A DNA stretch of 64,000 nt from Burkholderiales bacterium (GTDB taxonomy: Bacteria > Pseudomonadota > Gammaproteobacteria > Burkholderiales > Burkholderiaceae_C): NCBI GenBank assembly GCA_028868995.1, contig JAGWTH010000002.1, positions 62,001 to 126,000 of the forward strand, read 5' to 3'. Every line of letters starts with the position of its first letter. Positions within the stretch are counted from its first letter, which is position 1. Under the pieces are notes generated by a model. It saw only the letters and a program-made list of their open reading frames with translations. It was not told where the DNA came from and did no database searches. This document shows positions 3,494-50,674 of the stretch, piece after piece. The position numbers and the translations under genes were made by a program.

Positions 3494-4717
3494 ATGCCCC
3501 TGGAGTCCGTGCACAAGCCCATCCCCGGACTACGCCAGATGGCCTCCGATTCCGGCGGCCTCTACCTCGCGAACGCGCTGATCGGCTTCATCTTCGCTGC
3601 CTCGGGGCCGGTCGCCATCATCCTGGCGGTCGGCGCGCGTGGCGGCCTGAGCGAGTCCGACCTGTCGTCGTGGATCTTCGGCGCGTTCTTCGTCAATGGA
3701 CTGATCACGCTCCTGTTCTGCGCGCTGTACCGGCAGCCGCTCGTCTTCTTCTGGACCATCCCCGGCACGGTCCTGGTGGGCCCGGCGCTGGGCCACCTTC
3801 GGTGGGCCGAGGTCGTCGGTGCCTTCCTTGCCACGGGATTGCTGATGTTCGTGCTGGGCCTCTCGGGCTGGGTGCGGCGCGCCATGCGGGCCGTGCCGAT
3901 GCCGATCGTGATGGGGATGGTGGCCGGCGTGTTCCTTCGCTTCGGCCTGGGGCTGGTCTACGCCTTGCGCGACGACGTCTGGATCGCGGCACCGATGGTG
4001 GTCGCCTTCGTTGCGCTCGGCGCTTCGGCGACGCTGTCGCGCCGGCTGCCGCCCGTGATCGGCGCACTCCTCGTCGGCGCGGCGGCGATCGCACTGCTTG
4101 GACGATTCCATTCCAGCGGCGCGGCGCTGCACGCCTTCGCGCATCCCACGCTGTACGCCCCCGAGTTCTCATGGCGCGCCATGGTCGAACTCGTGCTGCC
4201 GCTCGCGATCACCGTGCTCGTGGTGCAGAACGGGCAGGGATTCGCTGTGCTCGATGCCGCCGGGCACAAGCCGCCGATGAACGCGATCACGGTCGCCTGC
4301 GGTGTGGGGTCCATGATCGCGGCGCTGGTCGGCACCGTGTCCACCTGCCTCACGGGACCGGTCAACGCCATCATCTCCGGGTCCGGCGAGCGGCGGCGGC
4401 ACTACACGGCGGGGCTGGCGGTGGGCGCGTTGGCGCTGGCGTTCGGCTTGTTCGCGCCCGTGTTCACCCGGCTGATGCTCGCGGCGCCACCCGCGTTCAT
4501 TGCCACGCTCGCCGGAATTGCGATGCTGCGCGTCCTGCAGACGGCGTTCAACGTGGCGTTCCGCGAGCGGTTCACGCTCGGCGCGCTCGTCACGTTCATC
4601 GTCACGGTGGCCGACGTTGCCATCTTCAACGTCGGCGCGCCGTTCTGGGGCCTCGTGATCGGCTACGCCGTGTCGCGCCTGCTCGAGCCGCAGGACTTCA
4701 GCGCCGCTGCCTCTTGA
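3494..4717 (+). CDS. BenE-family benzoate/H+ symporter-like membrane protein
   Basis: Start MPLESVHKPIPGLRQ; FWTIPGTVLVGPAL and multi-TM pattern typical of BenE. Confidence 0.8.
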   Translation: MPLESVHKPIPGLRQMASDSGGLYLANALIGFIFAASGPVAIILAVGARGGLSESDLSSWIFGAFFVNGLITLLFCALYRQPLVFFWTIPGTVLVGPALGHLRWAEVVGAFLATGLLMFVLGLSGWVRRAMRAVPMPIVMGMVAGVFLRFGLGLVYALRDDVWIAAPMVVAFVALGASATLSRRLPPVIGALLVGAAAIALLGRFHSSGAALHAFAHPTLYAPEFSWRAMVELVLPLAITVLVVQNGQGFAVLDAAGHKPPMNAITVACGVGSMIAALVGTVSTCLTGPVNAIISGSGERRRHYTAGLAVGALALAFGLFAPVFTRLMLAAPPAFIATLAGIAMLRVLQTAFNVAFRERFTLGALVTFIVTVADVAIFNVGAPFWGLVIGYAVSRLLEPQDFSAAAS

Positions 4718-45178: not shown

Positions 45179-47630
<2,452 letters not shown>

Positions 47631-47691
47631 TTGGACGAGCGCGGATTGCGAAAGCATTCGTAGCAAACCAATCACACAACAAGGAGATCCC

Positions 47692-49179
47692 ATGAGCGTA
47701 CGTATCGCGTTCCCCTGGTGCGTCCTTCGCGTTCCGCGGCAGTGGCTGGCCTGGCTTGCCTTCGGGCTGGCCGCGCTGGCCGCGGCGCCGCCCGCGTCCG
47801 CACTGCCCCTGTTCGCCCGGCAGACGGGTCAGAACTGCATGGCCTGCCATGCCGGCGGCCAGTTCCCCGAGCTCACCCCCTACGGCCGGATGTTCAAGAT
47901 GACCGGCTACACCATCGGCCAGCGCACGGTGCCGCTGTCGGCCATGGCGGTCCTGAGCAATTCGAGGGTGGCCAACACCTCGAAGAGCGACGATCCGGCA
48001 TCCGACTTCCACGAGAACAGCGCCACCATCCTGGCGACCGCGAGCATCTTCGCCGGCGGCAAGATCACCGACAACGTCGGTGCCTTCGCCCAGGCGACCT
48101 ATGACCCGTACTCGATCCAGAACGCCGACGGCAGCTTCTCCGGGCGCACGGTGGCCGACAACATCGACCTGCGCTACGCGGACCGCCGCATCGATCCGTC
48201 CTCCGACCTGATCTGGGGCGTGTCGGTCAACAACAACCCTTCCGTCTCCGATCCCTGGAACACGGCGCCGGCCTGGATGCAGTACGTCCCGGTCCCGTCG
48301 CCGACCAGCAGCCAGTTCGTCGACGGCAATGCACCCTATCCGGGTTACGCGGCGGGTTCCCCCCTGGCGGGCATCACGGCCTACACCTTCTGGAACCGGA
48401 CGCTCTACGCGGAGCTCGGCGGCTACGGGACGGCGCGCGGGGTCTTCTCGGTCTTCCACGCCGGCCTGCACGACGACGAGGTGCCCAAGCTCGACGGCGT
48501 CAACCCCTACTGGCGGCTCGCCTGGAACCATGAATGGGGCCCGCATGCCCTGATGATCGGCACCGGCGGCATGACGGCGCGCTACTACAACGACCCGCTG
48601 AACCCGACCGACCCGACGACGCTGCACCACACGCGCGACATCCTGTTCGACACGCAGTACCAGTACCTGCTCGACCCGTATTCGTTCACGGCGCAGCTGG
48701 TCTACGAGCACAGCACGCACCACTATCCCGACGGCCTGGCCAACCAGTCCGTGTCCTTCGTCGACGTGTTCGGCAACGCGCTGCCGGTGACCAACTCGGA
48801 AGACTCGACCAACCTGCTGCGCGCCAAGATGACCTTCGTGTACCAGGCGAAGTACGGCGGCAGCGTCGGCTTCTTCAACCTGACCGGGTCGACCAACACG
48901 GCGAACCAGACCTCGGGCTACAGCCCCGACACGGGGACCGTCACCAGCGACCCGAACGCGCAGGCGCCGTCGACGCGCGTCAGCGGCAACTTCAGCGGCA
49001 ACCCCGCCACGCGCGGCACGACCCTGGAGGCCTTCTGGACGCCGATCCAGTACATGCGCGTCGGGGTCCAGTACACCGCGTACAGCAAGTACAACGGCGC
49101 CGCGACCAACTACGACGGCTTCGGCCGCAACGCCAGCGACAACAACACGCTGTTCTTCTACGTGTGGGCCGCGTACTGA
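47692..49179 (+). CDS. Monoheme cytochrome fused to predicted outer-membrane beta-barrel (Cyc2-like fused cytochrome-porin)
   Basis: Signal peptide, LPLFARQTGQNCMACHAGGQFPELTPYGRMFKMTGYT heme-binding domain, then alternating amphipathic strands ending in ...LFFYVWAAY*. Confidence 0.75.
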   Translation: MSVRIAFPWCVLRVPRQWLAWLAFGLAALAAAPPASALPLFARQTGQNCMACHAGGQFPELTPYGRMFKMTGYTIGQRTVPLSAMAVLSNSRVANTSKSDDPASDFHENSATILATASIFAGGKITDNVGAFAQATYDPYSIQNADGSFSGRTVADNIDLRYADRRIDPSSDLIWGVSVNNNPSVSDPWNTAPAWMQYVPVPSPTSSQFVDGNAPYPGYAAGSPLAGITAYTFWNRTLYAELGGYGTARGVFSVFHAGLHDDEVPKLDGVNPYWRLAWNHEWGPHALMIGTGGMTARYYNDPLNPTDPTTLHHTRDILFDTQYQYLLDPYSFTAQLVYEHSTHHYPDGLANQSVSFVDVFGNALPVTNSEDSTNLLRAKMTFVYQAKYGGSVGFFNLTGSTNTANQTSGYSPDTGTVTSDPNAQAPSTRVSGNFSGNPATRGTTLEAFWTPIQYMRVGVQYTAYSKYNGAATNYDGFGRNASDNNTLFFYVWAAY

Positions 49180-49184
49180 GGGAG

Positions 49185-49829
49185 ATGACCATGCAACGCT
49201 TTCTTCTTGCCGGCGCCGCCCTGGCGGCCCTGCTCCTGTCGGGCTGCGCCGATGTCTCGCGGTCCCGCGACCTGGGGAACCCGCGGGTGCCGGGGATGAC
49301 CCTGGCGCAGCAGGTCTGTTCCAACTGCCACGGCATCACCGGCGTCACCATCTCGCCGAACTTCCCGAACCTCGCGGGCCAGCAGCCCGAGTACCTGGTC
49401 GCGCAGCTGAAGGCCTTCAAGAGCCACGGCCGGGACGACCCGGCGGGCTTCGAGTACATGTGGGGCATCAGCCGCAGCCTGACCGACGAACAGATGAAGC
49501 AGCTCGCGAGCTACTACGCGGCGCAGAAGCCCGCCGTGCCGACCGGCGAGAAGGACGCCGGCATCGAGCGGGGCAAGGCGATCTTCCACTCGGGCGTGAA
49601 GGACCACGTGCCCGCCTGCGCGAGCTGCCACGGCGACGCGGGCCAGGGCAACGGCACCTTCCCGCGCGTGGCCGGCCAGCATGCCGACTACGTGATGAAG
49701 CAGCTCATGGTCTTCCAGCGCACGGACGAGCGCCCGGATGGCGTGGCCATGAAGGCCATCACCCACGAGCTGAAAGAGGATCAGATGCGGGACGTGGCCG
49801 CGTACCTGCAGGCCATGCCGGCGAACTGA
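49185..49829 (+). CDS. Diheme c4-type cytochrome c (lipoprotein)
   Basis: Lipobox LLLSGC; CSNCH and CASCH heme motifs; NFPNLAGQQPEYLVAQLKAFK and FPRVAGQHADYVMKQL repeats. Confidence 0.9.
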   Translation: MTMQRFLLAGAALAALLLSGCADVSRSRDLGNPRVPGMTLAQQVCSNCHGITGVTISPNFPNLAGQQPEYLVAQLKAFKSHGRDDPAGFEYMWGISRSLTDEQMKQLASYYAAQKPAVPTGEKDAGIERGKAIFHSGVKDHVPACASCHGDAGQGNGTFPRVAGQHADYVMKQLMVFQRTDERPDGVAMKAITHELKEDQMRDVAAYLQAMPAN

Positions 49830-49876: not shown

Positions 49877-49897
49877 CCGGGGGCAGGAGTCCCCCGG
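49877..49897 (+). terminator. Possible transcription terminator after c4 cytochrome gene
   Basis: CCGGGGG-CAGGAGT-CCCCCGG 7-bp stem followed by ATTAATTT (weak T-tract). Confidence 0.45.
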
Positions 49898-49940: not shown

Positions 49941-50674
49941 GAGCGCAGTCCGCCGCCCACGCGCTCGCCGCGCTGCGCGCCGGCGCCCGTCCGCAGGAGC
50001 TGGGCGCGGCCCGGGCCGCGGTGCAGCAGGCCCAGGCCGACGCCGCCTTCGCGAACGAGCAGGTCGAGCGCGACCGCAAGCTGGTGGCACAGAACTTCCT
50101 GTCGCCGCAGCAGCTGGAGAAGGACAGGAGCCTGGCCGCCATGGCCGATGCGCGGGTGGAGCAGGCGAAGCAGAACGAGGCCCTGCTCCGGGCGGGGGCG
50201 CGCAAGGAGGACATCGAGCGCGCCGAGGCCGACGTGAAGGCCGCCGACGACGCGGTCCGCTCGGCGCGCGAGCAGCTCGCGCACGTGCGCGTCGAAAGCC
50301 CGGTCGACGGCGTCGTGAGCGTGCGCATGGCCGAGGCCGGGCAGGTCGTCTCGGCGGGGCAGCCGGTGTTGCGCATCACCGAGCTCGGGCACCCCTGGGT
50401 CCGGATCTACCTGGCCGAGGCGGACCTGCCGCGCGTGCAGCTGGGGCAGGCCGCGCAGGTGCGGGTGGACGGCCTGCCGGGCCAGGTGTTCGCAGGCCAT
50501 CTCGCCTTCGTCTCGCCGGAGGCGGAGTTCACGCCCAAGACGGTGGAGACCAAGGCGCTGCGGGTGGACCTGGTGTACCGCGCCAAGGTGGAGGTGGACG
50601 ATCCCGGCGGGCTGCTCAAGATCGGCATGCCCGCCGACGTCACGCTGCCGCTCGCCGCGCGCAACCCGTCATGA
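49941..50674 (+). pseudogene. HlyD-family membrane fusion protein, 5'-truncated
   Basis: In-frame stop TGA at 49940-49942 directly precedes HlyD-like AQSAAHALAALRAGARPQELGAARAAVQQAQADAAFANEQVERDRKL...; only 110 nt to the preceding cytochrome stop, so the signal/TM and first lipoyl half are absent. Confidence 0.75.

What the first reader, a model, noticed from the sequence alone, without database searches (positions are those of the whole stretch)
47692..49829. Candidate outer-membrane electron conduit: Cyc2-like fused cytochrome-porin followed by a diheme c4 cytochrome
Sequence: the 495-aa protein has a signal peptide, one CxxCH (CMACH) in a compact N-terminal segment (FARQTGQNCMACHAGGQFPELTPYGRMFKMTGYT), then about 400 residues of alternating amphipathic strands ending in an aromatic residue (...LFFYVWAAY), as in outer-membrane barrels. 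The stop is 5 nt before a c4-type diheme cytochrome with a lipobox (LLLSGC). Knowledge: Cyc2 iron oxidases are single-heme cytochromes fused to a porin, and in the Acidithiobacillus rus operon cyc2 is followed by the c4-type cyc1. Inference: this is a related electron-transfer pair in a heterotrophic betaproteobacterium; its electron donor or acceptor is unknown. It is the best candidate in the window for an under-described system.
Basis: partly seen in the sequence, partly recalled or inferred. Interest (0 to 1): 0.75.

Follow-up and report, generated by a model that had tools for sequence, protein, structure and literature searches.

The report
Cyc2-type iron-oxidase-like porin-cytochrome pair
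Two adjacent genes encode an outer-membrane barrel with one built-in heme and a lipid-anchored two-heme partner; they belong to the known Cyc2/Cyc1 family of iron-oxidising bacteria, but form a separate, untested branch found in culturable soil and water bacteria, where their role could be tested by gene deletion.

Summary
Observation confirmed. Window 47692-49179 encodes a 495-aa Cyc2-type protein: signal peptide, one CMACH heme site, exact match to the published Cyc2 motif AxPxFAR[QK][TY], and a predicted 16-strand barrel (AlphaFold pLDDT 74.7; best PDB folds are OmpF/OmpC). The next gene (49185-49829) is a diheme c4 lipoprotein. Its closest solved relative, by 47 bits, is 1h1o, an A. ferrooxidans c4 that I identify as Cyc1/CYC41.

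A profile of 27 homologues aligns full-length to a Cyc2 inside a rus operon (E 1.7e-61). It matches a second Cyc2 group, probably Cluster 1, over the heme domain only. The window protein sits in a well-supported subfamily (100/99) of this Cluster-2-like half. There the c4 gene follows in 45 of 47 loci, and all 45 c4 proteins carry a lipidation cysteine with a non-Asp +2 residue. Most c4 partners of other Cyc2 branches have ordinary signal peptides. Flanking genes are not conserved.

One correction: the host is not simply heterotrophic. Its genome has a RuBisCO operon, SoxB and a NiFe hydrogenase, but no rusticyanin.

Most likely an inward outer-membrane electron conduit, with Fe(II) as likeliest donor; donor and direction are unproven. 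Known family, apparently undescribed lipoprotein-coupled variant.

The parts
47681..47686 (+). ribosome-binding site of the cyc2-like gene (AAGGAG)
   Evidence: sequence
47692..49179 (+). cyc2-like gene: fused single-heme cytochrome-porin, 495 aa
47692..47799 (+). signal peptide region (residues 1-36); predicted helix 16-31
   Evidence: sequence and model; no signal-peptide program was available
47800..47925 (+). N-terminal heme domain, residues 37-78: ALPLFARQTGQNCMACHAGGQFPELTPYGRMFKMTGYTIGQR
   Evidence: most conserved part of alignment A1; matches published Cyc2 motif (PMC8406198)
47836..47850 (+). CMACH heme-binding site
47935..49173 (+). 16-strand beta-barrel, residues 82-494
   Evidence: AlphaFold2 strands, Foldseek to OmpF/OmpC E 3.6e-11
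49185..49829 (+). diheme c4-type cytochrome, Cyc1-like (start may be 49191)
49245..49247 (+). lipidation cysteine of the c4 (LLSG|C, +2 residue Ala: predicted outer-membrane lipoprotein)
   Evidence: sequence; Cys with +2 A/S/T in all 45 subfamily partners
49317..49331 (+). first heme site of c4 (CSNCH)
49617..49631 (+). second heme site of c4 (CASCH)
49877..49897 (+). terminator-like hairpin after c4, bounding a two-gene unit
   Evidence: 1 found, 1.0 expected by chance: weak; local fold z -2.16

Best explanation
The two genes encode an inward electron conduit across the outer membrane. The first product is a Cyc2-superfamily protein of the Cluster-2-like half: a 16-strand barrel with a single-heme domain at the periplasmic mouth. 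A small reduced donor, most likely dissolved or weakly complexed Fe(II), enters the pore and reduces the heme. The electron passes to the second product, a Cyc1-like diheme c4 held at the inner face of the outer membrane by its lipid anchor. From there it goes through periplasmic carriers to a terminal oxidase or other respiratory acceptor, and in this genome it could support CO2 fixation alongside sulfur and hydrogen oxidation. Shown by computation: family membership, predicted barrel, Cyc1-like partner, conserved pairing, lipobox, lithoautotrophy genes. Inferred: outer-membrane location, direction, Fe(II) as donor, c4 as direct acceptor.
For: Cyc2 motif, single CxxCH, length over 365 aa and porin all present. 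Profile A1 aligns full-length (model positions 7-476) to Cyc2 of G263 at E 1.7e-61; that gene lies in an operon with COX2, COX1, CtaA, UbiA/CtaB and a rusticyanin-family protein. Tree: well-supported subfamily within the group holding the rus-operon Cyc2. c4 downstream on the same strand in 45 of 47 subfamily loci, against 11 of 42 other full-length and 2 of 18 N-terminus-only relatives (Fisher p 2e-12, which ignores relatedness). c4 closest to 1h1o, 144 bits against 97. Iron oxidation is shown for a member of each Cyc2 cluster (PMC8406198). Related Ramlibacter are reported in Fe(II)-oxidising enrichments (PMC11784278, PMC11366258), and a MAG named 'Ramlibacter sp. isolate BP03' carries a 74% identical copy. 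The host genome has RuBisCO large and small subunits, a CbbX-like protein and phosphoribulokinase, SoxB and NiFe hydrogenase.
Against: No member of this subfamily has been tested in any paper found. Published work declines to infer iron oxidation from a distant Cluster 2 homologue without context (Nitrotoga SL_21, PMC10734462). No rusticyanin in the host and no oxidase genes beside the pair. RuBisCO does not track cyc2 significantly within the genus (5 of 8 against 14 of 52, p 0.095), and SoxB and hydrogenase already explain autotrophy. The heme domain is modelled at low confidence (pLDDT 44-49).
Confidence: 0.6

Rival explanations
1. Same anatomy and inward direction, but the physiological donor is not Fe(II) for growth: another small one-electron donor, or iron/redox homeostasis, detoxification or sensing at the outer membrane.
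For: The family occurs in many genera not known as iron oxidisers: Roseateles, Duganella, Rugamonas, Ideonella, Polaromonas. Patchy, 8 of 60 species of the genus, and not significantly tied to RuBisCO. He et al. 2017 raise non-iron roles for such homologues (PMC5566968); Sideroxydans work suggests a sensing role for constitutive Cyc2 (PMC12442390).
Against: [quoted passage not shown] the heme domain is strongly conserved and the Cyc1-like partner is kept.
Confidence: 0.27
2. Outward conduit: electrons from the periplasm leave through c4 and the porin-cytochrome to an extracellular acceptor such as Fe(III) complexes or humics.
For: Direction cannot be read from sequence; c4-type carriers can be reversible (general knowledge).
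Against: One heme in a narrow barrel is described as suited to dissolved donors (PMC8406198), and biochemically tested Cyc2 proteins oxidise Fe(II).
Confidence: 0.08
3. Copper-linked function: the pair belongs to a copper-handling group with the upstream PCu(A)C chaperone and DUF2946 genes.
For: PCuAC (47012-47491, Pfam 2.2e-34) and DUF2946 (46533-46889) lie just upstream on the same strand.
Against: Neither gene recurs as a conserved neighbour in the 26 other loci compared; only the cyc2-like gene and c4 are widely conserved.
Confidence: 0.03
4. Inactive relic in this genome.
For: The HlyD-family gene just downstream appears N-terminally truncated (217-243 aa against 298-347 aa in relatives).
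Against: Both frames are intact, GC at third positions is 0.944 as in host genes, and all conserved residues are present.
Confidence: 0.02

Closest known systems
cyc2-cyc1 of the rus operon, Acidithiobacillus ferrooxidans (Cluster 2 Cyc2 and Cyc1/CYC41, PDB 1h1o)
   Same: Single-heme cytochrome fused to a porin, followed directly by a Cyc1-like diheme c4; c4 is closest to 1h1o among solved structures.
   Different: No cup, cox or rusticyanin genes beside it and no rusticyanin in the genome; c4 has a lipobox.
Cluster 2 Cyc2 homologues of Burkholderiales and other Proteobacteria without known iron oxidation (PMC10654088, PMC5566968, PMC13386937)
   Same: Same superfamily, same uncertain function.
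   Different: This subfamily has a nearly fixed adjacent lipoprotein c4 (45 of 47), which the papers found do not describe.
Cluster 1 Cyc2 of Mariprofundus and Gallionellaceae (Cyc2PV-1, verified iron oxidase)
   Same: Heme domain motif and 16-strand porin architecture.
   Different: Probable members (groups f218/f205; identity inferred) align over the first ~115 positions only, lie across a long branch, and rarely have the c4 beside them (2 of 18 in that group).
Caballeronia, Methylocystis, Acidiphilium plasmid cyc2 loci
   Same: Full-length homologues (about 30-39% identity) with adjacent c-type cytochromes.
   Different: Other carriers nearby (HiPIP; three c-type cytochromes); partner c4 not lipidated where checked (Caballeronia, Methylocystis).

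Membership tests
Cyc2 superfamily | single CXXCH near the N-terminus after a signal peptide | tested here: met
   one CMACH at residues 49-53; signal peptide judged by eye and helix 16-31 of the model only
Cyc2 superfamily | AXPXFAR[Q/K][T/Y] motif upstream and PXL downstream of CXXCH (PMC8406198) | tested here: met
   ALPLFARQT and PEL present; PXL comes 5 residues after the site, the paper says 4, and the column is an insertion relative to many relatives
Cyc2 superfamily | length of at least 365 aa | tested here: met
   495 aa
Cyc2 superfamily | fused beta-barrel porin, about 16 strands | tested here: met
   16 strands, mean pLDDT 74.7; Foldseek OmpF/OmpC. Prediction, not a solved structure
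Cyc2 superfamily | homology to Cyc2 in a known iron-oxidation gene context | tested here: met
   full-length profile match to rus-operon Cyc2, E 1.7e-61
Cyc2 Cluster 2 | assignment by FeGenie cluster HMMs or the published tree | not tested
   HMMs and reference sequences not available; own trees place it in the half with the rus-operon Cyc2
Cyc2 superfamily | outer-membrane location and Fe(II) oxidation | not testable with these tools
   needs experiment
Cyc1 (rus-operon c4) | diheme c4 cytochrome closest to A. ferrooxidans Cyc1 | tested here: met
   1h1o 144 bits; next 96.8. That 1h1o is Cyc1/CYC41 rests on my knowledge plus the naming in PMC8406198
Cyc1 (rus-operon c4) | non-lipidated, with an ordinary cleavable signal peptide (as in c4 partners of other Cyc2 branches; for A. 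ferrooxidans Cyc1 itself from knowledge) | tested here: not met
   lipidation Cys with non-Asp +2 in all 45 subfamily partners; not in most c4 partners of other branches
rus operon | rusticyanin and cox genes with cyc2-cyc1 | tested here: not met
   no rusticyanin match in G000; neighbours are unrelated genes

The most novel reading that the evidence does not exclude
A distinct branch of Cyc2 in which the porin-cytochrome and a Cyc1-like c4 are fixed as a two-gene cassette, the c4 being lipid-anchored to the inner face of the outer membrane, so that pore and first electron acceptor form a standing outer-membrane unit instead of relying on a soluble carrier. It would give facultative lithotrophs and ordinary soil heterotrophs an auxiliary use of Fe(II) or another extracellular donor.
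Probability: 0.4. Interest if true: 0.65.

Novelty: new variant of a known kind. Interest (0 to 1): 0.5.

Why it matters
Whether Cyc2 homologues outside known iron oxidisers oxidise iron is an open question stated in the literature (PMC5566968, PMC8406198, PMC10734462), and genetics in classical iron oxidisers is hard. This subfamily occurs in named cultured strains (Roseateles saccharophilus DSM 654, Ramlibacter ginsenosidimutans KACC 17527, R. aquaticus LMG 30558, Ideonella dechloratans CCUG 30977, Rugamonas, Duganella), so deletion tests look feasible. If it does oxidise iron, biological Fe(II) oxidation is wider among common soil and water bacteria than marker surveys assume; if not, cyc2 is shown to be an unsafe marker for this branch.

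Tried and rejected
Pfam and NCBIfam give no family for the 495-aa protein even at E 10, and PHROGs none; PDB sequence search gives nothing useful. No match in phage records. A recent foreign insertion was considered: GC3 of both genes (0.944) equals that of host genes, so there is no compositional sign of recent arrival, although patchy distribution (8 of 60 species) and one same-genus copy (L072) grouping with non-Ramlibacter sequences suggest transfer at some time. The copper-operon idea was rejected on non-conserved flanks. A universal heme ligand Met85 was considered: 80 of 89 in the full-length group but not in the N-terminus-only group, so at most group-specific. A link between cyc2 and RuBisCO in the genus is not significant. 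A named A. ferrooxidans chromosomal Cyc2 could not be reached; 'of' needs a genome handle.

Full report
WHAT IS THERE. Window 47692-49179 (+) encodes 495 aa: a hydrophobic N-terminal segment, one heme site (CMACH, residues 49-53), and a long beta-rich part ending in an aromatic residue. A ribosome-binding site AAGGAG lies 5 nt before the ATG. The next gene, 49185-49829, encodes a diheme c4 cytochrome with a lipobox; the ATG at 49191 may be its true start. A terminator-like hairpin follows at 49877-49897, but one such match is expected by chance, so it is weak support for a two-gene operon.

IS IT A CYC2? The published signature is AXPXFAR[Q/K][T/Y] upstream of CXXCH and PXL downstream, in a protein of at least 365 aa with a porin domain (PMC8406198). 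The protein has all of these, and the motif occurs once in six frames of the window. AlphaFold2 with 27 sequences gives 16 strands, mean pLDDT 74.7 and pTM 0.75; the heme domain itself is modelled poorly (block means 44-49). Foldseek's best PDB matches are the 16-strand general porins OmpF/OmpC, E 3.6e-11, at about 10% identity and TM 0.4-0.6. So the fold class is supported, the detail is not. Pfam, NCBIfam and PHROGs have no model that matches.

RELATIVES. A genome-collection scan found 27 loci, 39-75% identical, in Ramlibacter, Polaromonas, Roseateles, Rhizobacter, Rhodocyclaceae, a Gallionellaceae MAG, Herminiimonas, Rugamonas, Duganella and Janthinobacterium. Annotated plasmids added Ideonella (68%), and Paraburkholderia, Caballeronia, Polymorphobacter, Methylocystis and Acidiphilium (29-44%); a record labelled A. 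ferrooxidans YQ-N3 gives the same match values as A. cryptum. A profile of the window protein and 26 homologues found relatives in 58 of 369 genomes of the class and 59 of 250 of the order. Two kinds of match appear: full-length, and a second group matching only the first ~115 positions. He et al. 2017 report that A. ferrooxidans Cyc2 and Cyc2PV-1 share significant similarity only at the N-terminus (PMC5566968), which fits.

LINK TO THE RUS OPERON. To anchor the tree without a named A. ferrooxidans Cyc2, I searched the matching genomes for rusticyanin. G263 has a rusticyanin-family protein (E 1e-39, just under the curated cut-off) about 7 kb from one of its Cyc2 genes on the same strand. The stretch reads cyc2, an unassigned 195-aa gene, COX2, COX1, an unassigned 189-aa gene, CtaA, UbiA/CtaB, rusticyanin-like, which resembles the published rus layouts without cyc1 (PMC10654088). 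The profile aligns to that Cyc2 full-length at E 1.7e-61. Trees place the window protein in a subfamily supported 100/99 (37 of 75 rows; 47 of 107 rows in the larger quick tree), inside the same half as this rus-operon Cyc2.

THE PARTNER. The c4's best solved relative is 1h1o, 144 bits, against 96.8 for the next c4. I identify 1h1o as the A. ferrooxidans c4 CYC41/Cyc1 from knowledge, together with the naming in PMC8406198. The c4 is also closer to c4 proteins beside several other Cyc2 branches (147-163 bits) than to the host's own other c4 (96 bits). In the subfamily a c4 follows on the same strand in 45 of 47 loci, against 11 of 42 other full-length relatives (some of these matches weak) and 2 of 18 in the N-terminus-only group. 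All 45 have a cysteine with a lipobox-like context 24-28 residues before the first heme, +2 residue Ala, Ser or Thr, followed in most by a conserved SR[DN] stretch. My pattern scored 38 of them automatically; the other seven (SAGC, FGC, SSGC types) were read by eye from the same output. Partners of other branches mostly show ordinary signal peptides; one pattern match there (L112) looks spurious. By the +2 rule (general knowledge) this predicts an outer-membrane lipoprotein. Apart from these two genes the flanks are not conserved; YceI-like genes follow in three loci. The PCu(A)C and DUF2946 neighbours in the window are therefore probably incidental.

THE HOST. Within the genus 8 of 60 species carry the gene, each with the partner c4. 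The host genome has a Calvin-cycle operon on the same contig, 80-90 kb upstream: LysR regulator, RuBisCO large and small subunits, CbbX-like AAA protein, phosphoribulokinase. It also has SoxB over the curated cut-off and a NiFe hydrogenase large subunit. No rusticyanin was found. Within the genus, RuBisCO and cyc2 are not significantly associated (5 of 8 against 14 of 52, p 0.095), so lithoautotrophy genes are context, not proof.

MECHANISM. Most likely a small reduced donor enters the barrel, reduces the heme at its periplasmic mouth, and the electron passes to the lipid-anchored c4 and onward to a respiratory acceptor. Fe(II) is the best guess because a verified iron oxidase exists in each Cyc2 cluster (PMC8406198), and Ramlibacter have been reported in nitrate-reducing Fe(II)-oxidising enrichments (PMC11784278, PMC11366258). 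One MAG with a 74% identical copy is named 'Ramlibacter sp. isolate BP03'; that it comes from the enrichment called culture BP is my inference from the name. Against over-reading: authors in the field decline to infer iron oxidation for a distant Cluster 2 homologue without context (PMC10734462), and cyc2 expression does not track activity even in known oxidisers (PMC12442390).

NOVELTY. Cyc2 in bacteria not known to oxidise iron is already reported (PMC5566968, PMC10654088, PMC13386937). What I did not find in the held literature is the subfamily with its near-fixed lipoprotein c4; absence from open-access full text is not proof of novelty. I rate it a new variant of a known kind.

Noticed in passing
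window 50021-50674 (+): HlyD-family efflux protein appears to lack its N-terminus (217-243 aa against 298-347 aa in G424 and G398), directly after the cyc2-c4 pair.
   Followed up: partly
L144 (G000:C22:16000-30000): Calvin-cycle operon with RuBisCO large and small subunits, CbbX-like protein, phosphoribulokinase and a divergent LysR regulator, on the same contig as the window.
   Followed up: yes
G000:C22:35899-37593 (L150) and G000:C15:77581-79233 (L151): SoxB and NiFe hydrogenase in the host genome, so sulfur and hydrogen lithotrophy are plausible.
   Followed up: partly
residue 85 of P0001 (window 47944-47946): A Met conserved in 80 of 89 full-length relatives including the rus-operon Cyc2, but not in the N-terminus-only group; candidate group-specific sixth heme ligand.
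   Followed up: partly
L034 and hit H8: The Cyc2-like gene on a plasmid labelled A. ferrooxidans YQ-N3 gives the same match values as one on an Acidiphilium cryptum plasmid: plasmid transfer or a mixed assembly.
   Followed up: no
L035 6001-7255; L107: Cyc2-like genes split into two open frames (Acidiphilium multivorum pACMV3; G550): broken copies or sequencing errors.
   Followed up: no
L016, L017, L019, downstream of c4: YceI-like genes follow the pair in three loci, in tandem in two of them; YceI identified by eye.
   Followed up: no
[quoted passage not shown]
   Followed up: partly
window near 3820 (+): A further CxxCH (CLPCHG) in a 798-codon open stretch, possibly a shadow frame.
   Followed up: no
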